Assembly (NCBI RefSeq): GCF_028369105.1
Contig: NZ_JAQNDO010000001.1
Span: forward strand, 12,432,501 to 12,496,500
Length of the DNA stretch: 64,000 nt
DNA from: Polyangium mundeleinium
Lineage (GTDB): Bacteria; Myxococcota_A; Polyangia; Polyangiales; Polyangiaceae
Direction: 5' to 3'
The notes beneath the pieces are model-generated. The model saw nothing but the letters and a program-made list of their open reading frames with translations. It was not told where the DNA came from and did not search any database. How positions within the stretch are numbered: position 1 is the stretch's first letter; the number at the start of each line of letters is the position of its first letter. Below are positions 31,501 through 44,051 of the stretch, piece after piece. Made by a program: the position numbers and the translations under genes.

Positions 31501-32540
31501 CGTGGGCCGAGAGCTCGCGCGGCGAGCGCCGCCAGCTCCTCGGGATCGCGGAGTCGATGCTCGAGCGCGCGGATCGCGAGGCCTCGCCGTTCACGCGCAG
31601 GCTCGCGGCGATGGGCTGGATCGCGCGCATGCTCCTGCGCTCCGGGCAGCGGAACGCGGCCGAGACGCTCACCGAGCGGTTCACGCAGGCGCCCGAGGAA
31701 GCACGGCACGAGCCCATCGTGCGGGCTGAGTGGGCGGCCGTCTCGGCGACGCGCGCGGTCGTCGAGGGCGACCTCGAACCCTCGTACGAATTTTTCCTCG
31801 AAGCCGCGCAGTGCTTCGAGGAGGCGAAGGTCGATCGGTTCGGCATCTCGATGCGCATCTACGCGGCGCTCGTGCTCTGTGACCTCGGCGATCATGCCCG
31901 CGCCGAGGAGGAGCTCGCCACGCTCGTCGCGCGCGCCGAGGCGCAGTGCTTGCCGATGCTCGCGGCGAGCGCGCGGCATGGTCTCGCCGAGGCGCTCGCG
32001 GCGCGCGGGGCGCTCGCCGAGGCGCGCGCGCTGCTCGAAGACATCCTGGAGACGCTCACGAACGCCGGCCTCGTGCTCTCCGCGCACGACGTGCGGCAGT
32101 TCCTCGCGCTCGTGCTCGTGCGCCAGGGCGACAGCGAGGCCGCCGAGCGCGCAGCGATCGAGGCCGTGGCGCTCGTCGACGCGCCGCCGAACCGCCGCTG
32201 CTCGTACCTCGCGACGCTGGCGCGCGTGCTGCTCGCGTGTGGCCGCCCTGCGGAGGCGCTTTCGGCGGCGGAGGAGGGCAAGCAGCTCCTCGAACAGATC
32301 GGCGCACTCCTCTCGGACGAGCCGCTCGTGCGGCTCGTGTATGCCGAGGCGCTCCACGCGAACGGCGAGCACGAGCGCGCGAAGGAAGCGCTCTCCGCGG
32401 CGCGCGCGCATCTCCTCGGCCGTGCCGAGAAGATCGGCGATCCGTCGCGGCGGGAGCGGTTCTTGCGTGCCGTTCCGGACAACGCCCGCACGCTGGAGCT
32501 CGCGGCGGCATGGCTCACCGCGTCACCGGGCGCGGCTTGA
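28599..32540 (+). CDS. Ser/Thr protein kinase-ATPase-TPR giant protein (copy 2)
   Basis: A 1313-residue protein with the same order of domains as copy 1. Kinase: Gly loop GQGGMGAVFE, Lys43, HRDIKPSNIF (HRD 132-134), DFGIARRA (154-156), GTPGYVAPEQ. A cyclase-homology-like region spans about 297-470 (RLVSVILLSAPKEG). The ATPase starts at TPCVGRERELSTLL, with a complete Walker A TGVAGIGKS (506-514) and VVLVLEDLHW as Walker B, followed by a long TPR-like region ending NARTLELAAAWL, which closely matches the end of copy 1. The N-terminus could start at either ATG (28599 or 28608). It probably integrates kinase activity with nucleotide-dependent oligomerisation; targets unknown. Confidence 0.92.
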   Translation: MLEMRVGVSVGERFELVRLAGQGGMGAVFEARDRETGDKVAIKIMNGASVEERARFDREARVLAALSHPAIVRYLGYGELDSGEPYLVMEWLSGEGLDARIMRERLSVEETMALAERIAGALAIAHRHGIVHRDIKPSNIFLRDGDVRRAMLLDFGIARRASDPHVVTRTGVFMGTPGYVAPEQARGDRAVNARADVFALGCVLFESLAGKPAFTGQHVVAVLAKVLFEDVPKVSALRPGVPLALDLLIARMVAKQPEERLADGDAVMGALARVANDEYTSEPPHTLRSKGALGSGEQRLVSVILLSAPKEGLPVDPLGGTMDSAGIAPLAALRAVARSYGARVEALVDGSAALVLSGAGMATDQATQAARCALALQAMVPEAPMVLVTGRGVISHALPVGEGIDRAAKLLREEERRTTTSDGSESGARRPVRLDELTAELLEGRFVIDGSEEVRSLLGEAQAQEGSRLLLGRVTPCVGRERELSTLLALYEECVSEPAARAVLVTGVAGIGKSRIRHELLQKLAESEPRPDIWLAQGDPTRTGAPFGMAGELLRRASSLHEEDPIEVRREKIRGAVMRHLGADAGRVMELYGELVGAPWAAEEASTLLRAARKDPVLMGDQIRRGFEDFVSAASAARPVVLVLEDLHWADTPTVQLIDAALRVSRERSLFVLALARPDVHDRFPGLWADRGMQEIRLGELSRRASERLARHVLGDDAPPSLLTRVVAQAAGNPFYLEELLRAVAEGQETALPKTVLAMLQARLEALPSEARWLLRAGSIFGETFWSGGARALLGGESSVVDAGRWIETLVHRELLMRRRESRFPGEEELAFRHDLLREVAYAALTEVDRALGHRLAAEWLETAGERDAMALAEHCERGEDREKAAVWFVRAATQALSANDFEAVLERSERAEACGADGGLLGEVRQAQAEAHFYRGELAEAARRAREAMQHLSPDSPLWFGAASAAAWAESSRGERRQLLGIAESMLERADREASPFTRRLAAMGWIARMLLRSGQRNAAETLTERFTQAPEEARHEPIVRAEWAAVSATRAVVEGDLEPSYEFFLEAAQCFEEAKVDRFGISMRIYAALVLCDLGDHARAEEELATLVARAEAQCLPMLAASARHGLAEALAARGALAEARALLEDILETLTNAGLVLSAHDVRQFLALVLVRQGDSEAAERAAIEAVALVDAPPNRRCSYLATLARVLLACGRPAEALSAAEEGKQLLEQIGALLSDEPLVRLVYAEALHANGEHERAKEALSAARAHLLGRAEKIGDPSRRERFLRAVPDNARTLELAAAWLTASPGAA

Positions 32541-32604: not shown

Positions 32605-33597
32605 ATGGAACGACGTGATTTTCTGAAGGTTGGCGTGATCGGTGGGGCGGGGACCGCGGCGACAGGCAGCCTGAGTTGCGCAGGCACGACGGGCGCGGCG
32701 GCGTCGCCTGTGGCGCTGGTCAGCCCCGAGGAAATGGATCGGTTTCTCGCGCGCCTCGATAGGGGCCTCGATTCGCTGAAGACCGGCGACAGCCCCATCA
32801 CATCACTCTTCCCGAAGCTCGATACTACGGATTCGAAGGTTCAGAAGCAGGACCAACTCGTCCGCAAGACGCTCCGCTCGCTCCTCCTCGTGGGCTCGTT
32901 CAGCGATCTGCCCGAGGAGGGGCGCGCGCATCCCGGCATGCAGGCGCGCATGTGGAACGGGATGGGCGAGATGGACGAAGCGATGCTCGGCATGACGAGC
33001 GAGCTCGAAGCTTTGACGCCCACCGAACGCGCGGACATCGGCCTCCGGATGCGCAAGGATCCGGGGCTTGGGATGCGGATCGTCGAGGCGCTCGACGAGG
33101 ACGCGGCCAGGGCCGGGATCTCGATGGAGCGGCGGCTGCATTTGCGTTCGATTGCGGTCGAGGCGTGCGCCCGCATGAAGCAATCGACGCCGCTGCTCAT
33201 CGACGAATACGTGACGAAGGTGAACAAGGTGGCGGCTCGGCCGGTGACGGTCGCGGACTTCGAACGCCGCCTCGTCGCGCAAATGGGCGAAGAGGCATTT
33301 TTTCAGCTCCGAGAGCGCACCGAGGCCCACGCGCGGCGCTGGAACGTGGCCAGCACGGGCGCGACCGCGAATGACGGCGCGTCCCAGGGCCCTCCCGCTG
33401 CGAACCCGCATAGCCGCAGCAACACGGTGCTCGCGGTGGGCGGCATTCTCCTCGGCGTCGGCGTGCTCGCCATGGTGATCGGCGGCATCTTCGCGTCCGG
33501 CGGCGGCGTCTTCGCGGTGACCGTCGGCGCGATCCTCGGCATTGCGGGGCTCATCACGCTCATCGTCGGCGCGATCCTCCGGGCGACCGAGGACTGA
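32605..33597 (+). CDS. Twin-arginine-signal protein with C-terminal membrane helices
   Basis: A 330-residue protein starting MERRDFLKVGVIGGAG, which contains the Tat consensus (RRDFLK) followed by a hydrophobic segment and a Cys (GSLSCAG), so it may be exported folded and perhaps lipidated. The middle 200 residues are mostly helical and charged (LTPTERADIGLRMRKD, EACARMKQSTPLLIDEYV) with no motif I recognise. The end has two hydrophobic segments (NTVLAVGGILLGVGVLAMVI and FAVTVGAILGIAGLITLIVG). A Tat leader combined with C-terminal membrane helices is uncommon. It sits 14 bp before the ketosynthase gene and could be the first gene of that operon. Confidence 0.75.
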   Translation: MERRDFLKVGVIGGAGTAATGSLSCAGTTGAAASPVALVSPEEMDRFLARLDRGLDSLKTGDSPITSLFPKLDTTDSKVQKQDQLVRKTLRSLLLVGSFSDLPEEGRAHPGMQARMWNGMGEMDEAMLGMTSELEALTPTERADIGLRMRKDPGLGMRIVEALDEDAARAGISMERRLHLRSIAVEACARMKQSTPLLIDEYVTKVNKVAARPVTVADFERRLVAQMGEEAFFQLRERTEAHARRWNVASTGATANDGASQGPPAANPHSRSNTVLAVGGILLGVGVLAMVIGGIFASGGGVFAVTVGAILGIAGLITLIVGAILRATED

Positions 33598-33611: not shown

Positions 33612-35672
33612 ATGCTCCCGCGACCGACCGCCGAACCCCGGGAATCGGGCTTTCCGATTGCCATCACGGGAATGGGCGCCGTCTCCGCGCTCGGCGGAAG
33701 CACGTCCGCCTTGTGGTCCGCCATCGAGGAGGGCCGCGACGGGATTCGCCCGATCGAGCGATTCTCGACCGAAGGTTTTTCCGTATCGCTCGGCGGGATG
33801 GTGCCCGGCACGGGCACCGGTGATCGTTGCGTCGAATTCGCCACAGCCGCCGCGCGCGAGGCCCTCGCGCATGCGGGAGTGCAGATCGGACCGGACGGCG
33901 TCGCGGGGCGCCGCGTGGCCCTGATCCTCGGCACGAGCCTCGGCATGCACGTAGACGGCCTGCACCGCGTCGCCGCGGAGGTCTCGCGCGTCCTCGGCAT
34001 CGAGGGCCCGACGCTCACCCTTTCGACGGCCTGCTCCTCCTCGACGAATGCGATCGGGCTCGGCCGGGATCTGCTCGAAGCGGGGCTCTGCGACCTCGCC
34101 CTCGCCGGCGGCACGGACGAGCTGACGCCGGAGATATTTGCCGGTTTTCACGCGCTCGGGCTGCTTTGCCTCTCGAAATGCGCGCCGTTCAGCGAGCCCG
34201 TGGGGACCACGCTGGGCGAGGGCGCGGGCTTTCTGGTGCTCGAACGTGGCGACGCGGCCCGCGCCCGCGGCGCGCGGGTGCTCGCGACGGTACTCGGGTA
34301 TGGCCTCTCGGCCGACGCATACCATCCCACCACGCCCGATCCCACGGGCGCCGGCGTCGCGCGGGCGCTGCGCGGCGCGCTGCTCGATGCGAGGATGGAG
34401 GCCGACGGCATCGATTACTTCAATGCGCATGGCACGGGCACGATGACCAACGACGCCGCGGAGTTCCGCGCGATCGAACAGGTCTTCGGCGAGCGCGTGG
34501 CGCGTTTGCCCGTGAGCTCCACGAAGAGCTTCCTCGGCCACGCGCAAGGCGCGGCGGGCGTGCTCGAGCTCATCGCGACCCTCTGCGGCATGACGCAGGG
34601 CAAGGTTCCTCCCACCTTGCATTACGACAAAGCGCGGCCGCGCTCTCCGCCCGATCCGGTGGCCGCCGACCGGCCCCGCGTAGCCCGCGTCGAGCGCGCG
34701 CTTTGCAACAACTCGGCATTCGGAGGCGCGAATGCCGCCGTCATCGTGGGCAAAGCGGAGCACGTTTCGGCCGGAAAAACCCCTGCCGACTTGATGGTCC
34801 TCGGCGCCTCCGCCGTGGGACCGCATGGGATGGATCTCGACGCGCTCGGGGCCGCGCTCACCGCGAACGTCCCGCTCCGCCGCCGCGCGCCCGCATTCCG
34901 CATCGAGAGCCTCATTCCCACGGCGGACGGCCGCGGGATGGATCCTGCTTCGCGGTACCTCTCGGCCGCCGCGGCGCTCGCCCTCGCCGACGCGGGGATC
35001 ACGCTGCGCGGCGCGAAACGTGATCGGGCGGGGCTCTTCGTCGGCACGACACGCGCCTCGACCGAAAGCGAACGTGAGTTCAGGGACAGCATTCGCGAGC
35101 GTGGCCTCGTGCGCCTCTCGGCCACGGCGTTCACGCGAATGGTCCTCAATGCGTCCGCGGGGACGTGCACGAAGCTCTGCGCGCTCAAGGGCCCGACCAC
35201 GACGCTCACCACGGGCGACGGCAGCGGCCTCGTCGCGCTCATTTATGCCGCATTGCACCTCTCGACGCGGTCCGATGTCGACCTGATCCTCGCGGCCGGC
35301 GTCGACGAGCGCGTCTCCCTCGAATCCGATACGCACGAGGGGGAAGGGGCGGCGTGCCTCGTGCTCGGCAAGGGCCCGGCGCCGGATGCATCCAAAGCCG
35401 TGCGTCTCTCGGGATTCGGCCTCGCCGGTCCAGGCGACGTCGAGGAGGCCACGCGCTTCGCGATTGGAATGGCTGGGCTCGACGCGAGCGCCGTTTTCGT
35501 GGCGCCGAACGTCGCGCCCATCCTCGGCCCCGCGCCGGGGGCCGCAGCGATGTTCGCCTGCGCGTTCGCCGTCTCCTCGATTTTGCGAGGGACCTGGGAG
35601 CACGTGCTGGTCCCCGATCCGGGCGGCACCGCCGCGGCCGCCGTGGTCTTCAGCCGAAAAGGAGCCACATGA
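33612..35672 (+). CDS. Ketosynthase fused to a Cys-less ketosynthase-like (chain-length-factor-like) domain
   Basis: A 686-residue protein. Residues 15-385 are a complete beta-ketoacyl synthase with Cys141 (LSTACSSSTNAI), His273 (NAHGTGTMTND) and His310 (KSFLGHAQGA), plus LGEGAGFLVLE and the C-terminal CNNSAFGGANAA loop. Residues about 394-686 repeat the fold in shortened form, but the nucleophile position reads TTGDGSG, with Asp536 where Cys would be, and no catalytic His motifs are kept. This resembles a ketosynthase and chain-length factor of a type II system joined in one chain. It would carry out decarboxylative Claisen condensation on acyl-ACP. The stop overlaps the ACP start by ATGA. 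Confidence 0.88.
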   Translation: MLPRPTAEPRESGFPIAITGMGAVSALGGSTSALWSAIEEGRDGIRPIERFSTEGFSVSLGGMVPGTGTGDRCVEFATAAAREALAHAGVQIGPDGVAGRRVALILGTSLGMHVDGLHRVAAEVSRVLGIEGPTLTLSTACSSSTNAIGLGRDLLEAGLCDLALAGGTDELTPEIFAGFHALGLLCLSKCAPFSEPVGTTLGEGAGFLVLERGDAARARGARVLATVLGYGLSADAYHPTTPDPTGAGVARALRGALLDARMEADGIDYFNAHGTGTMTNDAAEFRAIEQVFGERVARLPVSSTKSFLGHAQGAAGVLELIATLCGMTQGKVPPTLHYDKARPRSPPDPVAADRPRVARVERALCNNSAFGGANAAVIVGKAEHVSAGKTPADLMVLGASAVGPHGMDLDALGAALTANVPLRRRAPAFRIESLIPTADGRGMDPASRYLSAAAALALADAGITLRGAKRDRAGLFVGTTRASTESEREFRDSIRERGLVRLSATAFTRMVLNASAGTCTKLCALKGPTTTLTTGDGSGLVALIYAALHLSTRSDVDLILAAGVDERVSLESDTHEGEGAACLVLGKGPAPDASKAVRLSGFGLAGPGDVEEATRFAIGMAGLDASAVFVAPNVAPILGPAPGAAAMFACAFAVSSILRGTWEHVLVPDPGGTAAAAVVFSRKGAT
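35660..35664 (+). promoter_or_regulatory. Ribosome-binding site AGGAG of the acyl carrier protein gene
   Basis: AGGAG lies four bases before the ATG at 35669, inside the end of the ketosynthase frame. It supports independent, coupled initiation of the ACP and fixes its start. Confidence 0.75.
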
Positions 35673-35971
35673 ACCCCGAGCTTGCCCGGTACATCCAGCA
35701 TCGCGAGCGTATCCTCGACAAGGTGCGCACGCTCCTCGTCGAGCGCCTGCACGTGAGCCGCGCGCCCGACGAAATCGACCCCGACGCGCCGCTCTTCGGC
35801 ACGGGGCTCGGTCTGGATTCGGTGGACGCGGTCGAACTCCTGGTCAGCATGGAATCCGAGCTCGGCGTGAAGCTGCCGCACGAAGGTTTGTCGCGACCTG
35901 CCATGCGCACCGTGAATACGCTGGTCGACCTGGCCCTCGCCCACGGGAGGACGGACGATGTCGATGGATAA
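35669..35971 (+). CDS. Acyl carrier protein
   Basis: A 100-residue protein. The phosphopantetheine site is Ser51 in GLGLDSVDAVELLVSMESEL, a close match to the DSL/DSV motif, and the following helix is acidic as needed for partner docking. LPHEGLSRPAMRTVNTLVDLAL completes the four-helix fold. A 20-residue N-terminal extension (MNPELARYIQHRERILDKVR) precedes the ACP core. It presumably carries the growing acyl chain for the enzymes of this operon. No phosphopantetheinyl transferase is encoded nearby, so a housekeeping enzyme must activate it. It overlaps both neighbours (4 bp before, 14 bp after). Confidence 0.92.
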   Translation: MNPELARYIQHRERILDKVRTLLVERLHVSRAPDEIDPDAPLFGTGLGLDSVDAVELLVSMESELGVKLPHEGLSRPAMRTVNTLVDLALAHGRTDDVDG

Positions 35972-37007
35972 CGAAATCCGCGCTTTGCGCACGAGCGTGG
36001 CGCTCGCCGCGGGTGATCACGTCACGTGCCTGCGCGTCGAGGGCGAAGGCGCGTACGAGGCGCTCGACCACGTCGTCGCCTGCGATCTTTTCTTGCAAGA
36101 CGGCCAGATGCGCCCGAGCCTCTTGCTCGATGAGGAGGCCCGACCGTTCGCGGACATTCACGTGGCCCGGGACGACGAATCGTTCTTTTTGCTTGCCGAG
36201 GGGCCGTCGCCCGAGGAGCTCGTCGCGTTCCTGGACAAACGTTTTCCCTCGGGCGTCGAGGCGACGGTCGAGCGATGCGACGGGACGCTCCTCTCGTTGC
36301 ACGGCCCTTATGCCTGGGAGCTCTGCACGACCGTGTTTGGCCCGGACGTCGGGAGCCTTCCGTATCTCGCGTTTTACCGCACCGACGACGCCGTGTTTTT
36401 CCGGTCGGGCAAGACCGGCGAGTATGGATATGATTTGCTGATTCCCACGGGCGAAGTCGAGACCGTGCGCGAGGCGCTCCTCCGGGAGGGGGCGGCGTTC
36501 GACCTCTCCCTCACCAGCCTGGCGGCGCTGGATCAATGTGGGCTCGAAAATGGCTTCTTCAACATTCGCCGCGAAGGGCGCGCCGGCCTCTCGCCGCTGG
36601 AGCTCGGCCTGCAATGGCGCGTCTCGTACCGCAAGGAATACGTGGGATCCGCCGCGCTGCGGGCGCGGCGCGAGGCGGGCGCGAAAGCGCGGGTCGTATG
36701 GGCCGTCGCCGGGGCACCCGTGGCTGAAGGGGACGAGATTTTTCTGGACGATCAGCGGATCGGCCATGTCCTCGTGTCCGGCTTTTCCGTGATCCGCGGC
36801 GAATGGGTGGCGCTCTTGCTCCTCGATCGGCCATATGCGTACGCTGGCGTCACTCGATACGAGACCCATAGCGCGGGCGAGCGCAGGCCGATCCGCACCC
36901 TCTCGGCGCCGCTCCTCAACAACCGCAGCCTGTACGTGAGCCCCCAGCGACATAGCTACCGGGCGCGGGACGAATCCAAGATGCCGCCGTTCGTATTGCC
37001 GTTATGA
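35958..37007 (+). CDS. GcvT-like aminomethyltransferase-family protein
   Basis: A 349-residue protein from the ATG at 35958, preceded by GGGAGG seven bases upstream. The fold markers are those of the glycine-cleavage T protein: LSLHGPYAWEL, FFRSGKTGEYGYDLLIPTGE, the GLENGFFNIRREGRAGLSPLELGLQW segment with YRKEYVGSAAL, and a C-terminal barrel (GHVLVSGFSVIRGEW). The family binds tetrahydrofolate and handles one-carbon units; GcvT-like members also include demethylases and the YgfZ repair factor, but YgfZ's KGCYxGQE motif is absent. No GcvH, GcvP or GcvL gene is present. Its place inside a carrier-protein operon suggests one-carbon chemistry on, or folate-linked control of, the acyl product (inference). 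Confidence 0.83.
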   Translation: MSMDNEIRALRTSVALAAGDHVTCLRVEGEGAYEALDHVVACDLFLQDGQMRPSLLLDEEARPFADIHVARDDESFFLLAEGPSPEELVAFLDKRFPSGVEATVERCDGTLLSLHGPYAWELCTTVFGPDVGSLPYLAFYRTDDAVFFRSGKTGEYGYDLLIPTGEVETVREALLREGAAFDLSLTSLAALDQCGLENGFFNIRREGRAGLSPLELGLQWRVSYRKEYVGSAALRARREAGAKARVVWAVAGAPVAEGDEIFLDDQRIGHVLVSGFSVIRGEWVALLLLDRPYAYAGVTRYETHSAGERRPIRTLSAPLLNNRSLYVSPQRHSYRARDESKMPPFVLPL

Positions 37008-37753
37008 GTGCTCGATTCGACGACAGCACGGTGATCGTGACCGGCGCCTCGCGCGGGCTCGGCCGGAGCATCGCGACGGGATTCGGCGCCGAGGGGGCGT
37101 TTGTCTTCGTCGGATACCGGACGCGCGAGGACGAGGCGAAGGAGACGCTCCGCTCGATTGAAGAGGCCGGCGGGCGCGGCGCATTGCTTGTGATGGATGT
37201 CGCGAGCGCGGCGTCGATGAACGCGGCCGTGGAGCAGGTGCTCGCCGCGCGGGGCGCGATCGACGTGCTCGTGAACAATGCCGGCGTAGCGGCGGACGAG
37301 CTCTTCCCGCTCATGGCCGAGGAGAGCTGGGACGAGGTGATGCGCGTCAATGCGGGCGGCGCCTTCCACGGCTGCCGCGCGGTGGTGCGACCGATGATGG
37401 CGAAGCGGCGTGGCGCGATCGTCAACGTCGCCTCGGTCGCGGGCCAACATGCGAGCCCGGGGCAATCGAATTACGCAGCCTCGAAGGGCGCGATCCTCGC
37501 GTTCACACGCACGCTCGCGGCCGAGCTCGCCCCACGCGGGATCCGGGTCAATGCCGTGGTGCCGGGGCTGCTCGGCACGGGCATGGCGAAGCGCCTGGAC
37601 AAACGGATCGCGGAGAAGGCGCGTACGCAGATTCCGCTCGGGCGCTTCGGGACGGGCGACGAGGTCGCGCGGGCGGTCTTGTTTCTGGCCTCGGACGAGG
37701 CATCGTACGTGATCGGGCAGGCCCTCGTGGTGGATGGGGGACTCACGTTGTGA
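37004..37753 (+). CDS. 3-oxoacyl-ACP reductase (FabG-like SDR)
   Basis: A 249-residue short-chain dehydrogenase. Cofactor loop TGASRGLG, NNAGVAADELFPLM, catalytic Ser in VNVASVAGQHASPG and the YxxxK pair in NYAASKGAILAF are all intact, and the C-terminus has VVPGLLGTGM and VIGQALVVDGGLTL as in FabG. It would reduce the beta-keto group left by the ketosynthase, using NADPH. It starts at the ATG at 37004, overlapping the previous stop (ATGA), and ends in a GTGA overlap with the acyltransferase gene. Confidence 0.94.
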   Translation: MSARFDDSTVIVTGASRGLGRSIATGFGAEGAFVFVGYRTREDEAKETLRSIEEAGGRGALLVMDVASAASMNAAVEQVLAARGAIDVLVNNAGVAADELFPLMAEESWDEVMRVNAGGAFHGCRAVVRPMMAKRRGAIVNVASVAGQHASPGQSNYAASKGAILAFTRTLAAELAPRGIRVNAVVPGLLGTGMAKRLDKRIAEKARTQIPLGRFGTGDEVARAVLFLASDEASYVIGQALVVDGGLTL

Positions 37754-38712
37754 CGGTGGCGTTTCTGTTTCCCGGGCAGGGCACGAAGGGGCTCGTCGCA
37801 GCCGTGCAATTCGCGGAGAGCGAGCCGCGGGGGAAAGAAATGCTCGAACGGGCAGCGGCGGCGGCCGACATCGCGCCGAGCGAGCTCCTGGCGAAGGGCG
37901 GGCGCGCGCTCGAACGCACGGACATTCAGCAACCGGTGCTCACGGCGGTCGCGCTCTTCGTGCACGCGGAGCTTCTCGCCGCGGGGATCAAGCCCGATGT
38001 CGTGGCAGGTCACTCGCTCGGAGAGCTCCCGGCCTGGGCAGCGACAGGCGCCCTCACGCCCGAGGATGCGATTGCGATCGCGGCGCTGCGCGGACGGTTG
38101 ATGGCACGGGAAGCAGAGCGGCACCCGGGGACCATGTTCGTATTCTCGGGACTCTCCGTCTTCGAGGCTGGGACGCTCAAGCGCGCGCTCGCGCGTATCG
38201 GAATCGACACGGCGGCATCGAATACGCCTGGCGAACTGGTGGTGAGCGGCGATGAGGATTCCATACGCAGCATGGAGCGTACCGTGAATGCAGCCATGGC
38301 TGTGTTTTCCAGTGGCGATTTCTGGTCCCGCGCGCGACGCTTGCCGGTTGCTGGTCCCTGGCACAGCAAGGCGATGAAAGATGCGGTTCCCGAGCTGGAA
38401 GCGGCGCTTACGCACGCGCGTCGGGGGACCATGCAGGTCCCCATGGTGCTCAATGCCACCGGAAAGCTCGCCGAGGCGGAGGCGCTCGTCCCGCGCCTGC
38501 TCGCCGGCCAGCTCGTCCATACCGTTCGCTGGACCGACGTCATGGCGACCCTCCAAGACGGCGGCGTCGCGGATTTCGTGACCATCGCTCCGGGCGCGGT
38601 CTTGCGATCGCTCGTCCGTGCGAACGTCGATGCTCATGCGCGGGTCCACGCGACCGAAAACGCGAATGACATGCAACGCACCGTGGACGCGCTGCGGTGG
38701 AGCCTCTCATGA
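37750..38712 (+). CDS. Malonyl-CoA:ACP transacylase (FabD-like acyltransferase)
   Basis: A 320-residue protein with a GTG start at 37750. FabD motifs: FLFPGQGTKGL (oxyanion Gln), the nucleophile Ser in VAGHSLGELPAWAATGA, the carboxylate-binding Arg in ALRGRLMAREA, and the catalytic His in VAGPWHSKAM. The presence of that Arg argues for a dicarboxylic (malonyl-type) extender rather than a plain acyl group. NTPGELVVSGDEDSI and QLVHTVRWTDVM also fit the family. It should load malonyl units onto the operon's ACP. The stop overlaps the dehydratase ATG. Confidence 0.92.
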   Translation: MTVAFLFPGQGTKGLVAAVQFAESEPRGKEMLERAAAAADIAPSELLAKGGRALERTDIQQPVLTAVALFVHAELLAAGIKPDVVAGHSLGELPAWAATGALTPEDAIAIAALRGRLMAREAERHPGTMFVFSGLSVFEAGTLKRALARIGIDTAASNTPGELVVSGDEDSIRSMERTVNAAMAVFSSGDFWSRARRLPVAGPWHSKAMKDAVPELEAALTHARRGTMQVPMVLNATGKLAEAEALVPRLLAGQLVHTVRWTDVMATLQDGGVADFVTIAPGAVLRSLVRANVDAHARVHATENANDMQRTVDALRWSLS

Positions 38713-39323
38713 AAACGAGCTCCCGTTTGTCCCTCGGCGCGGACGTCATCAACCTCCTGATCCCGCACCGTCGCCCCTTCTCGATGGTCGACGTGATCGA
38801 ATCGTACGAGCGCGGGCCGCGACCGACCTTGCGCGCCGCGCGCCACGTGTCCGCAAACGAGCCCGTGTTCGAGGGCCATTTCCCGGGCCTGCACCTCTGG
38901 CCCGGCGTGTACACAATCGAGGGGCTCGGCCAAAGCAGTAACCTCCTCGGCATCATCGCCGCATACCAGGATGCCTGGGAAGCAAAGGGCCACGATCCGA
39001 ACGACGTGATCGAGGCCCTGCAAAACCTGGCGCTCGGATATCGCCTGCAACCGGGATACAAGCCCGAGGTCTCGGCGGCGCTCATCGAGTCGCTGAAGGC
39101 GCATTCCAATTTGCACGTCGGAATGAGCGCGTCGGTGGACGTGAAGCTGCTCCAGCCGGTCTTCGCCGGGCAGCGGATCGAGTACATCGTTTCGCAATCG
39201 CATCTCATGGAAAACCTCGCGCGGTACGAGGTCGAGGCACGTGTGGAGGGGCGCACGGTGGCGAAGGGCGTGATGACCAGCACGCGCAGCATCCCGCCGC
39301 TGCCAGCGCCGATCTTCGGATGA
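38709..39323 (+). CDS. 3-hydroxyacyl-ACP dehydratase (FabZ-like) with central insertion
   Basis: A 204-residue hot-dog-fold protein from the ATG at 38709. The FabZ active site is present: LIPHRRPFSMVDVIE, the His in FEGHFPGLHLWPG, and the acidic residue in YTIEGLGQ. Ordinary FabZ is about 145-155 residues. Here roughly 50 extra residues (from about AYQDAWEAKGHDP to SLKAHSNLHVG) sit between the central helix and the strand VDVKLLQPVFAGQ. The enzyme should dehydrate the hydroxyacyl-ACP made by the FabG-like reductase. With no enoyl reductase in the operon, the double bond may be retained. It starts inside the transacylase stop (ATGA). Confidence 0.88.
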   Translation: MKTSSRLSLGADVINLLIPHRRPFSMVDVIESYERGPRPTLRAARHVSANEPVFEGHFPGLHLWPGVYTIEGLGQSSNLLGIIAAYQDAWEAKGHDPNDVIEALQNLALGYRLQPGYKPEVSAALIESLKAHSNLHVGMSASVDVKLLQPVFAGQRIEYIVSQSHLMENLARYEVEARVEGRTVAKGVMTSTRSIPPLPAPIFG

Positions 39324-40756
39324 AGGCGGTTTTCCTCGGGCTCGCCCTGCTCGTTTCATCGGGCTGCGGGCCTTCGGTGGTTTGGCTAGGCCACAGCCCC
39401 GATCGAAGCCATCACCTCGAGGTGCTGGAGAGCGCCGGCAAACAGCGAGTGCGCGTCGATGGCGTGGACGGGGCCGCGTATCTGGGCATCGGGATCGAAT
39501 CGCTCGTCTGGAGCGCGGACGGCCGCCGCCTCGCCTACCCCGCGCGCCACGAAAAAGGCTGGTCGCTCGTGGTGGACGGGCGCGCAGGCCCGACGTTCGA
39601 CGGCGTGGGCGAGGTCGTCCTGAGCCCCGACGGCGCGCACGTGGCTTATGCGGCGCAGCGAAGAGGCGTGTGGTTCGTGGTGCTGGACGAGAAACCCGGG
39701 CCCGCCTTCGATGCCATTCTGGAGGGCACGATGCTCTTCGGGCAGGGCGGGCGTTTCGCCTATGTCGGGAAAACCGGAGCCTCCGTGCGCGCGGTCGTCG
39801 ACGGCGCCCCCGGGCCGCGCTACGACGGCATCGGCGCATTACGATTCAGCGAGGACGGGGCCGCGGCAGCGCACGTGGGGCGGCGCGGCGAGGAGGCGTT
39901 TTTCTGGATGAACGGGCGTGAATCAGCGCCCGCGGAAGCGATCGCGTACCATGCGCTCGGGCCGCGCGGGGGGCGTCATGCCTACGTGGCGAAGCGCAAC
40001 GGGCAATGGCGCGTGACGGTCGACGGAATCGAATCCGCGCCGTATGCTCGTATCTCGGAGGTGCTCTTCAGCGCCGACGGCGCGCATGTAGCTTATGCGG
40101 GCCGTCGGGCGGATGGAGAGGTCCTCGTCCTCGACGCCGCGGAGGGCCCGCCGTACGAGGAAATCGCGCCCGGGAGCCTGGTCTTCGGCGCCGAGGGGGA
40201 GCGCTTGGCGTATGCGGCGCGGCGCGGTCGCGGTTGGCACATCGTCGTGAATGGGGAAGAGGGCCCGGCCTATGACGCGGTGGATCGGCCGATATTCGCG
40301 CAGCATGGGACGAAATTTGGTTATGTCGCCGCGAGCCGCGGCGCGCGATTCGTGGTGATCGACGGGCACGAGCAGAGGCCGTTTGCCTGGGCGGGAGATC
40401 TGACGTTCAGCGCCGATGGCCGATATCACGCCTATCTGGCGGATGACGGCGAGCGAATGCGGGTCGTGCAGGATGGTGCGTCGACGTCGTTCGACAGCGT
40501 GATCGCCGGGACGCTCGTTCACGCGGAGCAAGGGCCGGGCTGGGCGTGCCTCGTGGTCGACAAGGCGGCGAGGAAGCTGTTCATCGTGATCGACGGCGCG
40601 AAAAAGAGGCCGCTCGACGCAGAGGAGCTGGCAGCGGCCATGACCCAGCCGAGGTTCGAAGCGCGGTTTACGCGGGCAGAAGACGCGGAGCTTCTGCGAC
40701 GGTGGGTGGCGGCGGAGCTCGTGTTGTCGAGGCGGCGGCCAGCCCCCACGCGGTGA
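39320..40756 (+). CDS. Lipoprotein with WD40-like/TolB-type beta-propeller repeats
   Basis: A 478-residue exported protein. The signal peptide MKAVFLGLALLVSSGCG ends in a lipobox. The mature chain has about eight repeats of the type (L/V)xxSxDGxxxAY followed by W/V-rich strands and a VDG or GPxYD turn (for example SPDGAHVAYAA, SADGAHVAYAG, SADGRYHAYLA), the pattern of a propeller built from PD40-like blades. A charged helix ends the protein. Such propellers bind proteins or glycans at the cell surface. Its ATGA coupling to the dehydratase gene ties a surface lipoprotein to the acyl pathway, perhaps for export or display of the product (inference). Confidence 0.82.
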   Translation: MKAVFLGLALLVSSGCGPSVVWLGHSPDRSHHLEVLESAGKQRVRVDGVDGAAYLGIGIESLVWSADGRRLAYPARHEKGWSLVVDGRAGPTFDGVGEVVLSPDGAHVAYAAQRRGVWFVVLDEKPGPAFDAILEGTMLFGQGGRFAYVGKTGASVRAVVDGAPGPRYDGIGALRFSEDGAAAAHVGRRGEEAFFWMNGRESAPAEAIAYHALGPRGGRHAYVAKRNGQWRVTVDGIESAPYARISEVLFSADGAHVAYAGRRADGEVLVLDAAEGPPYEEIAPGSLVFGAEGERLAYAARRGRGWHIVVNGEEGPAYDAVDRPIFAQHGTKFGYVAASRGARFVVIDGHEQRPFAWAGDLTFSADGRYHAYLADDGERMRVVQDGASTSFDSVIAGTLVHAEQGPGWACLVVDKAARKLFIVIDGAKKRPLDAEELAAAMTQPRFEARFTRAEDAELLRRWVAAELVLSRRRPAPTR

Positions 40757-40880: not shown

Positions 40881-43412
40881 ATGACGTCCCCCACCGCGAA
40901 CACGCCCTCGCCGAGCACGCCTGCGGATGGCACTGCGGCTGCGCAGGAGCCCGCTCGTTACGTTCACGCCGAGGCCGAGCCCCGCTGGCAGCGCTTCTGG
41001 GAGGAGACCGGCGTCTTCCGCGCCGTTCGCCATGAAGGTCGGCCCAAGCGGTACGTGCTCGACATGTTCCCCTATCCCTCGGGCGCGGGCCTCCACGTCG
41101 GGCACCCCGAGGGCTACACGGCGACCGACATCTTCTGCCGCTACAGCCGCATGAAGGGGTTCGACGTCCTGCATCCGATGGGCTGGGACGCCTTCGGCTT
41201 GCCTGCCGAGCAGTACGCGATCCAGACCGGCACCCACCCCGCCGAGACCACGCGCAAGAACATCGACACGTTCCGGCGCCAGCTCAAGATGCTCGGCTTC
41301 AGCTACGACTGGGAGCGCGAGTTCGGCACCATCGACGAGAACTACGTCCGCTGGACCCAGTGGATCTTCGTCAAGCTCTTCGAACGCGGCCTCGCCTATC
41401 AGGACAAAGTCCTCGTCAACTGGTGCCCCGCCCTCGGCACCGTCCTCGCCAACGAGGAGGTCATCGACGGCAAGAGCGAGCGCGGCGGTCACCCCGTCGT
41501 CCGCACCCCGCTGCGCCAGTGGATGCTCCGCATCACCGCCTACGCCGACCGCCTCGCCGAGGATCTCGCCCTCCTCCAGTGGCCCGAAGGCACCGTCACC
41601 GCCCAGCGAAACTGGATCGGTCGATCCGAGGGCGCGACCATTTCGTTCGACGTCCAAGGGTTCGAGGGCGCAAAGATCGACGTGTTCACGACGCGCCCCG
41701 ACACGCTGCTCGGGTGTACGTACGTCGTGCTCGCGCCCGAGCACGCGCTCGTCTCGAAGGTCACCTCGGCCGAGAACATCGACGCCGTGCGCGCGTATGT
41801 CGAGGCCACTGCACGCAAGAGTGACTTCGAACGCACCGCCGTCGTGAAGACCAAGACCGGCGTCCCCACGGGCGCGATGGCGATCCACCCGATCACCGGC
41901 GTGGCCGTGCCCATCTGGGTCGCCGACTACGTCATCGGTAGCTACGGCACGGGCGCGGTCATGGCCGTCCCGGCCCACGACGAGCGCGACTTCGCGTTCG
42001 CCAAGGCGTTCGAGCTGCCGATCATCGAGGTCGTGAGCCCCGACGGAAAGCTCCACGATTCGCTCGACGCGGCCTACGTCGACGCGGGCGTCCTCGTGCG
42101 GAGCGGCAAGTTCGACGGCCTCAAGTCCACCGATGGCAAGCGCGCCATCGTGGACGAGCTCGTCACCTTGGGCAAAGGCGCGCAGAAGGTCACGTACAAG
42201 CTGCGCGACTGGGTGTTTTCCCGGCAGCGGTACTGGGGCGAGCCGATCCCGGTCTACTTCCCCGTCGAGATGAAGGATCCGGCCGGTGACCCGCGCAAGG
42301 GCGACGAGCACGTGATCCTCTACGACAAACCCATCGCCGTCGCCGAGAGCGAGCTGCCCCTGCGCCTGCCCAACCTCGTCGATTTCCGCCCCGGCGACGA
42401 CCCGCAGGGTCCGCTCGCCCGCGCGGTCGATTGGAGGTTCTTCCAGAAAGACGGGCAGTGGTACGCGCGCGAGACGAACACGATGCCGCAATGGGCGGGC
42501 TCGTGCTGGTACTACCTGCGTTTCCTCGACCCGAAGAACGACACCGAGGCGTGGAGCCAGAAGGCCTATGACGATTGGATGCCCGTCGACCTCTACGTCG
42601 GCGGCGGCGAGCACGCCGTGCTCCACCTGCTCTACGCGCGCTTTTGGCACAAGGTGCTGTTCGACATCGGCAAGGTGAAACACCCCGAGCCGTTCATGAA
42701 GCTCGTCCACCAGGGCCTCATCCTGGGCGAGGACAGCGAGAAGATGTCGAAATCGCGCGGCAACGTGGTGAACCCCGACGACATCGTGAAGGCCTACGGC
42801 GCCGATTGCCTGCGCCTCTACGAGATGTTCATGGGCCCGCTCGAAGCGGTCAAACCCTGGCAATCCGCGCAGATCCAGGGCGTCGTCCGCTTCCGCGACC
42901 GCATCTTCTCGATCCTCACGGGCCGGCCCCTGGTCGACACCATCGATGACGCCACGAAGCGCCTCGTCCACAAGACCATCAAGAAGGTCACGGAGGACAT
43001 CGAGACGCTCTCGTTCAACACGGCGATCTCGGCGATGATGGTTCTCCTGAACCACCTCGGCGCACTGAAGGAGCTGCCGCGGGAGGCAGCGCGGGGTCTT
43101 TTGATCTGCGTCTCGCCGTTCGCGCCGCACGTGGCCGAGGAGGTTTGGCGCCTGTGGGGCAACGAGCGTTCGATCGCGCTCGAAGCCTGGCCCACGTTCG
43201 ATCCGACGCTCTGCGTCGACGACGTGATCGAGATGGCCGTGCAGGTGAACGGCAAGGTTCGCGGCCGCGTGACGCTGCCCGTCAAGGCCAGCGAAGACGA
43301 GGCCCGTAACGCCGCGCTCACAGCCGAGGGTGTCTCGGCGTTCACGGCCGGCAAAACGTTGAAAAAGTTTATCTACGTACCCGGCAAGATCGTGAATCTC
43401 GTCGTCGCCTGA
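40881..43412 (+). CDS. leuS: Leucyl-tRNA synthetase
   Basis: An 843-residue class I aminoacyl-tRNA synthetase. Diagnostic segments: FPYPSGAGLHVGHPEGYTAT (HIGH motif), HPMGWDAFGLPAEQYAI, the editing domain starting around GATISFDVQG with RPDTLLG and MAVPAHDERDF, then CWYYLRFLDP, VDLYVGGGEHAVLHLLYARF, and EDSEKMSKSRGN (KMSKS motif). The C-terminal tail VQVNGKVRGRVTLP and FIYVPGKIVNLVVA completes the tRNA-binding domain. Length is normal and all motifs are intact, so this should be the housekeeping enzyme. About 15 Ala/Pro/Thr-rich residues precede the conserved start. The 124-bp upstream gap probably holds its promoter. Confidence 0.98.
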   Translation: MTSPTANTPSPSTPADGTAAAQEPARYVHAEAEPRWQRFWEETGVFRAVRHEGRPKRYVLDMFPYPSGAGLHVGHPEGYTATDIFCRYSRMKGFDVLHPMGWDAFGLPAEQYAIQTGTHPAETTRKNIDTFRRQLKMLGFSYDWEREFGTIDENYVRWTQWIFVKLFERGLAYQDKVLVNWCPALGTVLANEEVIDGKSERGGHPVVRTPLRQWMLRITAYADRLAEDLALLQWPEGTVTAQRNWIGRSEGATISFDVQGFEGAKIDVFTTRPDTLLGCTYVVLAPEHALVSKVTSAENIDAVRAYVEATARKSDFERTAVVKTKTGVPTGAMAIHPITGVAVPIWVADYVIGSYGTGAVMAVPAHDERDFAFAKAFELPIIEVVSPDGKLHDSLDAAYVDAGVLVRSGKFDGLKSTDGKRAIVDELVTLGKGAQKVTYKLRDWVFSRQRYWGEPIPVYFPVEMKDPAGDPRKGDEHVILYDKPIAVAESELPLRLPNLVDFRPGDDPQGPLARAVDWRFFQKDGQWYARETNTMPQWAGSCWYYLRFLDPKNDTEAWSQKAYDDWMPVDLYVGGGEHAVLHLLYARFWHKVLFDIGKVKHPEPFMKLVHQGLILGEDSEKMSKSRGNVVNPDDIVKAYGADCLRLYEMFMGPLEAVKPWQSAQIQGVVRFRDRIFSILTGRPLVDTIDDATKRLVHKTIKKVTEDIETLSFNTAISAMMVLLNHLGALKELPREAARGLLICVSPFAPHVAEEVWRLWGNERSIALEAWPTFDPTLCVDDVIEMAVQVNGKVRGRVTLPVKASEDEARNAALTAEGVSAFTAGKTLKKFIYVPGKIVNLVVA

Positions 43413-43427
43413 GCGTCCCATCCACAC

Positions 43428-44051
43428 ATGAAAACTGCACGCTTGCTTCCCCTCGTCCCCGCCCTCGCCTTCGCCATGCTCGCGCCGCTCGCCGCCGGCT
43501 GCTCGAGCGACCCCGTGTTCGTCCGCGGCTCGGAGGTCAAGGGGCTCGACGACCCGCCGATGAGCACCGGCATCGACAAGCGCGACATGGAGCAGCTCCT
43601 CCACGAGAACATGAAGCACCTCGTGGCCTCGCCCCTCGCCAAGGCCTGGGCCGACGCGGGCGACAAGCCCACGCTGGCGATCTTCCCGATGCTCAACGAG
43701 ACGAGCCAGCACGTCGACAGCCAGCTCCAGGCAGTGCTCTCCGACGCCGAGACGTTCATGGTGAACTCGCAGCTCGTCACGGTCGTGAGCCGCGAGCGGC
43801 AGAACCAGATGATCGCCGAGGTCGAGCGGCAGAACGGCGGCCAGTTCGATCCGAACCACGCGGCCCAGTACGGCCGTCAGCTCGGCGCGAAGTACTACAT
43901 GACCGGCAAGGTCTACACCTCGGACGAGCGCACGGCCGGCGGGCGGCGCGTGCAATACTTCATGTTCATGCAGGTCATCGAGACCGAGACGAGCGCGGTG
44001 CGCTGGCAAAACAAGGCGGCCTTCACGAAGGCCCTGCTCAACCAGGATTGA
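43428..44051 (+). CDS. LpoB-like lipoprotein (penicillin-binding-protein activator family)
   Basis: A 207-residue protein with a signal peptide and lipobox, MLAPLAAGCSS. The mature region matches the LpoB/YcfM family: KPTLAIFPMLNETSQHVD, LQAVLSDAETFMVNSQLVTVV, AQYGRQLGAKYYMTGKVYTS and YFMFMQVIETETSAVRWQ. In E. coli, LpoB is an outer-membrane lipoprotein that activates PBP1b; the same fold also occurs in lipoproteins of other roles. It starts 15 bp after leuS and is followed 1 bp later by a COG3014-like lipoprotein, an association seen in other genomes together with CsgG-like proteins. Confidence 0.87.
   Translation: MKTARLLPLVPALAFAMLAPLAAGCSSDPVFVRGSEVKGLDDPPMSTGIDKRDMEQLLHENMKHLVASPLAKAWADAGDKPTLAIFPMLNETSQHVDSQLQAVLSDAETFMVNSQLVTVVSRERQNQMIAEVERQNGGQFDPNHAAQYGRQLGAKYYMTGKVYTSDERTAGGRRVQYFMFMQVIETETSAVRWQNKAAFTKALLNQD

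What the first reader, a model, noticed from the sequence alone, without database searches (positions are those of the whole stretch)
33612..40756. Seven-gene, fully overlapping type II acyl/polyketide synthesis operon with a GcvT-like protein and a propeller lipoprotein
The genes run KS-KS', ACP, GcvT-like, FabG-like, FabD-like, FabZ-like, propeller lipoprotein, and every junction overlaps (ATGA, 14 bp, ATGA, GTGA, ATGA, ATGA). This gives a minimal elongation cycle (load, condense, reduce, dehydrate) with no enoyl reductase, no FabH starter enzyme and no housekeeping neighbours such as plsX, rpmF or acc genes. Known type II fatty acid theory would leave double bonds in place, giving a polyene-like acyl chain. 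Aryl-polyene clusters share some elements but also carry ammonia lyase, CoA ligase and methyltransferase genes that are absent here. The GcvT-like protein and surface lipoprotein are unexpected partners. I know of no described pathway with this exact set.
Basis: partly seen in the sequence, partly recalled or inferred. Interest (0 to 1): 0.85.

Follow-up and report, generated by a model that had tools for sequence, protein, structure and literature searches.

The report
Granadaene-like polyene operon in a myxobacterium
A soil myxobacterium carries a compact, widely conserved set of genes that probably builds an unsaturated, polyene-like lipid for the cell envelope with the same core machinery that makes the red haemolytic pigment of group B Streptococcus, including a glycine-cleavage-like protein whose job there is still unknown.

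Summary
The seven overlapping genes are exactly as described. The operon is larger: a Tat-signal protein gene (32605-33597) just upstream is conserved with it. It is not the cell's fatty-acid synthase: fabH-fabD-fabG-acpP-fabF lies elsewhere. The order Tat, KS-KS', ACP, GcvT-like, FabG, FabZ (often with FabD and propeller) recurs in all six genomes of the genus, in sporadic Polyangiales, and in records named Fibrobacterota, Gemmatimonadota, KSB1, Poribacteria and Bacteroidota. The claim that no pathway has this set is wrong: granadaene (cyl) operons of Gram-positives use ACP, KS/KS', KR, DH, malonyltransferase and CylF, an 'aminomethyltransferase'. In a tree the window's GcvT-like protein and a Lactococcus CylF fall together, apart from 22 other T-protein-fold sequences (support 100/99; CylF is a long branch). 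CylE, the cyl permease and CylJ were not found; Tat and propeller proteins are there instead. Best reading: a cyl-like polyene synthase whose product goes to the envelope. Most of the GcvT-like clade has changed the canonical folate pocket, which argues against the published guess that CylF splits glycine, and it nearly always sits beside an ACP. A related cluster core sits in 370 of 5426 complete E. coli genomes. New variant of a known kind.

The parts
32605..33597 (+).
   Evidence: Twin arginine R3R4 invariant in 40 of 40 aligned rows (39 of the 47 frames found, cut to the profile start, plus the window); upstream of KS in other families; no PDB fold match, model pLDDT 72; weak TAT_signal hit below cut-off
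33612..35672 (+). KS-KS' fusion (686 aa): FabF-like KS plus a degenerate chain-length-factor-like second KS
   Evidence: PF00109/PF02801; C141, H273, H310 present; the Cys position of the second domain is D536, and Cys is not among the eight commonest letters there (58 of 70 rows)
35669..35971 (+). Acyl carrier protein (100 aa) with DSV phosphopantetheine site
   Evidence: PF00550 6.7e-11; Ser motif; blastp nearer to AcpC (1e-16) than to own AcpP (3e-5)
35958..37007 (+). GcvT-like / CylF-clade protein (349 aa)
   Evidence: GCV_T 6.3e-30; T-protein fold, pLDDT 96.5, TM 0.84 to 1WOO/1WOS; clade with CylF 100/99; folate-pocket residues changed
37004..37753 (+). 3-ketoacyl-ACP reductase (FabG/CylG-like)
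   Evidence: Best NCBIfam TIGR01830 is below its cut-off (272.1 vs 297.75), NF009466 FabG passes (243.8 vs 222); Y-x3-K motif
37750..38712 (+). Malonyl-CoA:ACP transacylase-like (FabD)
   Evidence: PF00698 8.7e-30; GHSLG, LRGRLM and WHSK motifs
38709..39323 (+). 3-hydroxyacyl-ACP dehydratase-like hot-dog protein (FabZ/CylZ-like)
   Evidence: PF07977 2e-10; GHFPG His and TIEGLGQ Glu present
39320..40756 (+). Beta-propeller lipoprotein (478 aa)
   Evidence: Cys at end of signal (GLALLVSSGC); weak PD40 and partial TmcD-like hits; a homologue lies downstream of GcvT in 22 of 51 loci with enough flank

Best explanation
An operon of at least eight genes encoding a dedicated, iterative type II polyene synthase of the cyl (granadaene) kind, with Gram-negative envelope proteins in place of the Gram-positive finishing and export genes. 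Steps: FabD loads malonyl on the dedicated ACP; KS-KS' condenses, the KS' acting as chain-length factor; FabG reduces; FabZ dehydrates; with no enoyl reductase the cycle repeats and leaves a conjugated polyene acyl chain on the ACP. The GcvT-like protein (CylF clade) works on the ACP: the T-protein cavity that in glycine cleavage takes the lipoyl arm of H-protein most likely takes the phosphopantetheine arm, handling the starter or growing chain rather than doing folate chemistry. The Tat protein and the propeller lipoprotein probably receive, anchor or place the finished lipid in the periplasm or outer membrane. Shown by sequence: gene set, catalytic motifs, conservation as a unit, CylF kinship, changed folate pocket. 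Inferred: polyene product, chain-length role of KS', role of the GcvT-like protein, envelope destination.
For: Catalytic motifs intact in KS, ACP, KR, MAT and DH; second KS lacks Cys. No ER in the operon. Separate housekeeping fabH-fabD-fabG-acpP-fabF and a separate, stronger FabA-family hit. Order: 18 of the 21 relatives' loci fetched are long enough for full KS-KS', ACP and GcvT, and all 18 have them in that order. Of 67 named loci, contig-edge ones included, 28 have Tat, KS-KS', ACP, GcvT, FabG, FabZ in strict order; three more have Tat between KS-KS' and ACP; 16 of the 28 also have FabD and propeller. Co-inheritance: distance correlation with KS-KS' is 0.93 GcvT, 0.88 FabG, 0.87 ACP, 0.84 Tat; 0 of 999 permutations as high; 28 of the 31 loci used. 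CylF kinship: 49 ACP-linked proteins, L. allomyrinae CylF included, split from 22 other T-protein-fold rows with 100/99 support. By blastp the KS-KS' is nearer the Priestia megaterium cyl-like KS-KS' (1e-89) than own FabF (8e-48). The cyl operon suffices for granadaene, a 12-alkene polyene, in L. lactis (PMC6985545: abstract passage, section 7). Kin clusters carry envelope or export genes: LolA-like + ABC/FtsX (Paraburkholderia; E. coli), MMPL + LpxL-type acyltransferase (Opitutales).
Against: No product is known, and no pigment assay could be run. CylE was not found in the own genome (a search without positive control), nor in the window or 110 loci; the L. allomyrinae permease and CylJ also found nothing there, while an ABC ATPase of the E. 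coli cluster found ten frames, two of them at 62-64 kb of the window, outside the operon. How the chain leaves the ACP is unexplained. cylF mutants are reported as milder, not null (PMC6920887, passage). The FabZ-like protein has a long stretch between its two matched parts and could be an isomerase or a hot-dog decarboxylase like AmcE (PMC10698177, passages). The own genome also has an APE-like cluster (L044) and a second KS-KS' cluster (L043). Lactococcus CylF is a long branch (1.89) of uncertain place; pairwise, the window scores 60.5 bits with it, 60.1 with own true GcvT and 83.2 with T. maritima GcvT, against 102 with the Priestia member. FabG is at least as near to own FabG (189 bits) and APE-like KR (196) as to CylG (177). 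The ACP-arm model has no direct test. FabD, FabZ and propeller are missing near many relatives.
Confidence: 0.62

Rival explanations
1. The GcvT-like protein keeps one-carbon or ammonia chemistry: it splits glycine or transfers a folate-bound C1 unit and supplies ammonia or a C1 group to the product, as proposed for CylF.
For: Published prediction for CylF (PMC6985545). Full T-protein fold. The Tm GcvT D96 equivalent is kept: D in 58 and E in 8 of 67 letters.
Against: In the 67 loci plus the window, Tm Y188 is K or R in 62 of 67 letters and never Y; E195 is E in only 4 of 68; R227 is R in only 8 of 68; Y83 is H, Q, P, A, D or E in at least 61 of 68. The own true GcvT keeps all of them, and the DMGDH-like protein keeps Y83, D96, Y188 and E195. 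CylF itself has F, F, Q and N at Y83, Y188, E195 and R227 and E at D96. No ornithine-synthesis gene is among the eight cassette genes. Counter to this argument: the enterobacterial members keep Y83 and the Priestia member keeps Y188, and the folate roles of these residues are recalled.
Confidence: 0.13
2. An unusual FAS branch for ordinary membrane lipids (for example hydroxy or mono-unsaturated acyl chains for a Polyangiales lipid), finished by the housekeeping enoyl reductase.
For: All enzymes are FAS-like; a trans-acting FabI is reported as recruited in cispentacin biosynthesis (PMC10698177, passages).
Against: Dedicated KS-KS' pair with chain-length-factor-like half and dedicated ACP; kinship with cyl-type KS-KS' and GcvT; patchy distribution, 22 of 144 order genomes.
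Confidence: 0.17
3. An aryl-polyene (APE) variant.
For: KS + chain-length factor, KR, DH and an envelope destination are shared; in Fibrobacter and Opitutales relatives the ACP-GcvT pair sits in clusters with an MMPL exporter, an LpxL-type acyltransferase or a glycosyltransferase.
Against: No acyl-ACP synthetase for an aryl starter, no methyltransferase, no second ACP and no RND exporter among the eight cassette genes; Table 1 of the E. coli APE cluster has no GcvT (PMC8253772, passages).
Confidence: 0.08

Closest known systems
cyl operon / granadaene biosynthesis (group B Streptococcus, Lactococcus, Acidipropionibacterium; PMC6985545, PMC6920887)
   Same: ACP, KS, KR (CylG), DH (CylZ), malonyltransferase (CylD or MAT) and CylF, the GcvT-type protein, in one operon; a KS' gene in the L. 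allomyrinae copy; window GcvT-like protein in the CylF clade
   Different: No CylE, cyl permease or CylJ found; Tat protein and propeller lipoprotein instead; 'Gram-negative' and 'Proteobacteria' do not occur in the main text of PMC6985545
cyl-like cluster of Priestia megaterium pBM500 (L171)
   Same: MAT-KR-ACP-DH-GcvT-KSKS, nearly the same gene set, fused KS-KS'
   Different: MFS exporter, PPTase, thioesterase; different order; no Tat or propeller among the annotated products
Enterobacterial ACP-GcvT-KSKS cluster (E. coli L172, Enterobacter L167, Rahnella L170)
   Same: KR-DH-ACP-GcvT-KSKS core plus MAT (in L170 no gene is listed at the KSKS place)
   Different: AcpS, extra KS, ABC/FtsX + LolA-like export, two-partner secretion genes; no Tat or propeller among the annotated products
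Aryl polyene clusters (PMC8253772)
   Same: Type II FAS-like polyene logic, KS + CLF, outer-membrane lipid
   Different: No GcvT in Table 1; aryl starter loading, methyltransferase, RND/Lol transport
Glycine cleavage T-protein (GcvT)
   Same: Fold and the D96 position
   Different: Most folate-pocket residues replaced; partner ACP instead of H-protein; separate clade

Membership tests
cyl (granadaene) operon | ACP + KS/KS' + KR + DH operon | tested here: met
cyl (granadaene) operon | CylF-clade aminomethyltransferase-like protein | tested here: met
   ML tree, 49 ACP-linked vs 22 others, 100/99; CylF long branch and assumed root are caveats
cyl (granadaene) operon | CylE acyltransferase (in all cyl operons per PMC6985545) | tested here: not met
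   No match in own genome (no positive control) nor in the window and loci L043-L151 plus L015; query was the GNAT-type gene of L. allomyrinae, called CylE by its place
cyl (granadaene) operon | CylA/CylB ABC exporter | tested here: not met
   No ABC gene among the cassette genes; the L. allomyrinae permease finds nothing in window or loci; the E. coli-cluster ABC ATPase finds ten frames, in the window only at 62-64 kb; CylA itself was not a query
cyl (granadaene) operon | Product is an ornithine-linked polyene | not testable with these tools
   No chemistry
Aryl polyene cluster | Aryl-acid acyl-ACP synthetase, second ACP, RND exporter | tested here: not met
   Absent among the eight genes; gene list from PMC8253772 Table 1
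Housekeeping FAS II | Sole or main FabD/G/F/Z set, next to fabH/acpP | tested here: not met
   Housekeeping set at G000:C1 about 7.68 Mb (L045), fabH-fabD-fabG-acpP-fabF-nrdR; stronger FabA-family hit at 9.57 Mb
Glycine cleavage T-protein | T-protein fold | tested here: met
Glycine cleavage T-protein | Folate-pocket residues (Tm Y83, Y188, E195, R227; recalled assignments) | tested here: not met
   window has P, K, D, L; changed in most of the clade; D96 kept
Cispentacin (Amc) type II PKS-like | AmcF/AmcB/AmcE equivalog cut-offs | tested here: not met
   240.2 vs 325, 36.6 vs 80 and 41.4 vs 140 bits

The most novel reading that the evidence does not exclude
CylF and its relatives are a new kind of carrier-protein partner: a T-protein fold moved from the lipoyl arm of H-protein to the phosphopantetheine arm of a dedicated ACP, with the folate site dismantled, that serves polyene synthesis in bacteria of about ten phylum-level groups (by record names). 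In Myxococcota and other Gram-negatives it works in an undescribed envelope polyene pathway whose product is handled by a Tat-exported protein and a propeller lipoprotein.
Probability: 0.38. Interest if true: 0.8.

Novelty: new variant of a known kind. Interest (0 to 1): 0.6.

Why it matters
It links an apparently orphan myxobacterial operon to the machinery of a known haemolytic polyene. It extends that machinery from Gram-positives (the phyla named in section 7 of PMC6985545: Firmicutes, Actinobacteria, one Chloroflexi) to many Gram-negative records, including a related cluster core in 370 of 5426 complete E. coli genomes. It also makes an open question directly testable: what the GcvT-type protein CylF does. 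The altered folate pocket and the near-constant ACP neighbour argue against the ammonia-supply proposal.

Tried and rejected
Housekeeping FAS: rejected. Cispentacin-type pathway, suggested by NCBIfam hits: all below cut-off, and AmcH and the aminotransferase have no counterpart among the cassette genes. Ladderane/PUHC clusters: some flanks have FAD amine-oxidase-like genes (a family in 8 loci, one member scanned) and a Fibrobacter frame has radical-SAM and B12 domains, but the terms aminomethyl and glycine cleavage do not occur in PMC2649909 (passages). Solanimycin: its glycine cleavage passage concerns isotope labelling, not a cluster gene. swf sponge cluster: the aminomethyltransferase ORFs are in a table of flanking ORFs with FAD oxidoreductases (passages). 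Viral contigs: four stretches matched a pattern, none a relative. Fold search of the Tat protein: nothing with E under 1. Paper searches for GcvT or aminomethyltransferase with polyketide, ketosynthase or aryl polyene terms returned 0 papers; the cyl papers surfaced, after the plasmid search. All ten paper searches are spent; whether the Tat/propeller version is in print was not searched specifically.

Limits of counts. Profiles used do not separate paralogues; the KS, ACP, FabG and FabD profiles were built with some own-genome housekeeping or paralogous rows inside, so I rest comparisons with own proteins on blastp, not on those profile scores. My first 'in order' count (31) did not check Tat against KS-KS'; one search gives 28 strict plus 3. 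The tree used 71 rows after leaving out 12 and thinning 14. The Tat alignment used 39 of 47 frames. Alignment A3 left out L124 and L133 (stop inside the named range) and some short or redundant loci. The distance test left out L073-L075 as near-copies.


Full report
Observation. The seven ORFs and all six overlaps are as described. Pfam and NCBIfam name a KS-KS' fusion, ACP, GcvT-like, FabG-like, FabD-like, FabZ-like and a weakly PD40/TmcD-like propeller protein. Catalytic motifs (recalled) are present in all enzymes; the KS Cys/His/His are C141, H273 and H310; the equivalent Cys of the second KS is D536, and across 70 aligned rows Cys is not among the eight commonest letters there (58 rows), as in a chain-length factor.

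The operon is longer. A 330-aa protein (32605-33597) ends 14 bp before the KS gene; it starts MERRDFLKVG, a Tat-type signal (motif recalled), and ends in hydrophobic helices. Homologous genes lie upstream of KS in other families, and the twin arginine is invariant in 40 of 40 aligned rows. Its predicted fold is helical (pLDDT 72) and matches nothing in the PDB.

Not primary metabolism. The own genome (13.25 Mb, two contigs) has 35 matches to the KS family, many in open frames of thousands of residues as in modular PKSs; a housekeeping fabH-fabD-fabG-acpP-fabF-nrdR locus at about 7.68 Mb; a stronger FabA-family hit at 9.57 Mb; and 23 acyltransferase-domain matches.

Conservation. In 144 genomes of the order, 22 have a close GcvT-like protein (E at most 7.7e-61), including six of six of the genus; 136 have some match at E 1e-3 or better, the rest presumably ordinary T-proteins. 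I fetched the neighbourhoods of all 21 others. In the 18 with enough contig, KS-KS', ACP and GcvT lie in that order; the other three are cut by contig ends. One (L059) lacks FabG, FabD and FabZ, and FabD is displaced or missing in several. A scan of one genome per species found 146 relatives, of which the best 80 were kept. Of these I treat 67 (L072-L138) as the ACP-linked kind: ACP directly upstream in 61 of 67 by script; of the six misses, L096, L130 and L131 start at or near a contig edge, and L118, L119 and L129 have an ACP in view. A KS-type gene is nearby in 53 of 67. Tat, KS-KS', ACP, GcvT, FabG, FabZ lie in strict order in 28 of 67, three more (L089, L090, L106) have Tat between KS-KS' and ACP, and 16 of the 28 also have FabD and propeller. 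Record titles of these 31 include Myxococcota, Fibrobacterota, Gemmatimonadota, KSB1, Poribacteria and Bacteroidota (the isolate Labilibacter sediminis among them), plus single bins named Nealsonbacteria and Proteobacteria, which may be mis-binned. Distances of GcvT, FabG, ACP and Tat follow those of KS-KS' (r 0.93, 0.88, 0.87, 0.84; 0 of 999 permutations as high; 28 loci), so the cassette travels as a unit.

Other architectures. In Paraburkholderia ribeironis: ACP-GcvT, three KS-KS' genes, AcpS, SDR, MAT, then a second MAT, two KR and two DH of which only one DH was Pfam-scanned (the rest named from their first residues), then ABC, FtsX/MacB and a LolA-like protein. In Opitutales/Verrucomicrobiota records: ACP-GcvT with MMPL, LpxL-type acyltransferase, glycosyltransferase or other acyltransferase; in Fibrobacter: with MMPL and radical-SAM/B12 domains. 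Extra flanking families, one member of each scanned: FAD amine-oxidase-like (8 loci), FAD halogenase-like (7), DUF1702 (5), and a weak ferritin/desaturase-like match below cut-off (6).

The link to granadaene. A protein search of plasmids hit enterobacterial genes at 1e-34 to 1e-43, two of them annotated 'aminomethyltransferase family protein', in clusters AcpS-KR-DH-ACP-GcvT-KSKS-KS-...-ABC-permease-LolA-...-MAT (in Rahnella, no gene is listed at the KSKS place). A search with the ACP then found Priestia megaterium pBM500 and a Lactococcus allomyrinae plasmid. The latter reads KR, ACP, DH, ABC permease, GNAT-type protein, aminomethyltransferase, KS, KS', 'cylJ protein'; only cylJ is so named in the record, and the labels CylE and CylF are mine, by order and product. 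In PMC6985545 (passages and section 7) CylF is conserved in all cyl operons, the operon alone makes granadaene in L. lactis, and CylF is proposed, not shown, to free ammonia for ornithine. Mutants in cylF are described as milder than those in acpC, cylZ or cylE (PMC6920887, passage).

Tree. In a maximum-likelihood tree of 71 T-protein-fold sequences, 49 ACP-linked ones (window, CylF, Priestia and enterobacterial included) separate from 22 others (own GcvT and its kin, DMGDH-like, T. maritima, 12 distant loci) with support 100/99, and in 99% of 200 bootstrap trees. CylF is a long branch (1.89); its nearest rows by path include outgroup rows; the root is assumed between the groups. Pairwise scores alone do not show the kinship: the window scores 60.5 bits with CylF, 83.2 with T. 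maritima GcvT, 60.1 with own GcvT, 102 with the Priestia member and 140-154 with enterobacterial members. By blastp the window KS-KS' matches Priestia KS-KS' at 1e-89 and own FabF at 8e-48; its ACP matches AcpC at 1e-16 and own AcpP at 3e-5; its FabD matches Priestia MAT at 114 bits and own FabD at 73; but FabG is at least as near to housekeeping and APE-like reductases as to CylG.

The GcvT-like protein. The model has the full T-protein fold (pLDDT 96.5; TM 0.84 to 1WOO/1WOS). Mapped on T. maritima numbering, D96 is kept (58 D, 8 E of 67), but Y188 is K or R in 62 of 67, E195 is kept in 4 of 68, R227 in 8 of 68, and Y83 is replaced in at least 61 of 68; the own true GcvT keeps all. CylF shows the same erosion, but the enterobacterial members keep Y83 and the Priestia one keeps Y188. 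That these residues hold folate is recalled (T-protein structure papers, not held here); PDB titles (a D97N T-protein complex, a D552A dimethylglycine oxidase mutant) show only that Asp residues of these enzymes were mutated. The simplest reading is a T-protein that moved from the lipoyl arm of H-protein to the phosphopantetheine arm of an ACP. That step is inference.

Membership. It works like a cyl polyene synthase and shares its core by descent at GcvT/CylF, but CylE and an exporter, present in all cyl operons per PMC6985545, were not found (one search had no positive control). I therefore file it as a new variant, not as a cyl operon.

Noticed in passing
L172:12929-27722 (E. coli O158:H23 chromosome, between pgaABCD and tRNA-Ser): An ACP-GcvT-KSKS cluster with AcpS, ABC/LolA-like export and MAT; a 4-kb piece of its core matches 370 of 5426 complete E. 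coli genomes, 368 over at least 80%, whereas its last gene ycdU matches 2638 of 5426, so ycdU may be a relic of this cluster in many strains. The adjacent TpsB gene is marked as a pseudogene in this strain.
   Followed up: partly
L167:6270-26724 and L170 (Enterobacter bugandensis and Rahnella plasmids): The same cluster on plasmids, preceded by a two-partner secretion pair (filamentous haemagglutinin-like + FhaC-type), suggesting that the lipid and a secreted protein may belong together.
   Followed up: no
L043:7537-12907 (own genome, about 8.85 Mb): Two KS-KS'-sized genes with an ACP related to the cassette's (blastp 168 and 53.9 bits); no GcvT-family match lies there: possibly another polyene pathway.
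   Followed up: partly
L044 (own genome, about 3.26 Mb): Several KS genes, a FabA-family gene and a FabG-like gene together, aryl-polyene-like by eye.
   Followed up: no
L059 / L109: A reduced cassette KSKS-ACP-GcvT followed by a protein with a ferredoxin-like Cys motif (by eye) and a weakly ferritin-like family, in place of FabG, FabD and FabZ.
   Followed up: partly
L111:3954-6309, L091:3481-5967, L108:4602-6819: Two tandem copies of the Tat protein gene ahead of the KS gene.
   Followed up: no
window 28599-32540 and 40881-44051: A 1313-aa ORF upstream (protein kinase/ATPase/TPR-like by eye), and leuS plus a lipoprotein downstream, flank the operon in all five genus relatives checked.
   Followed up: no
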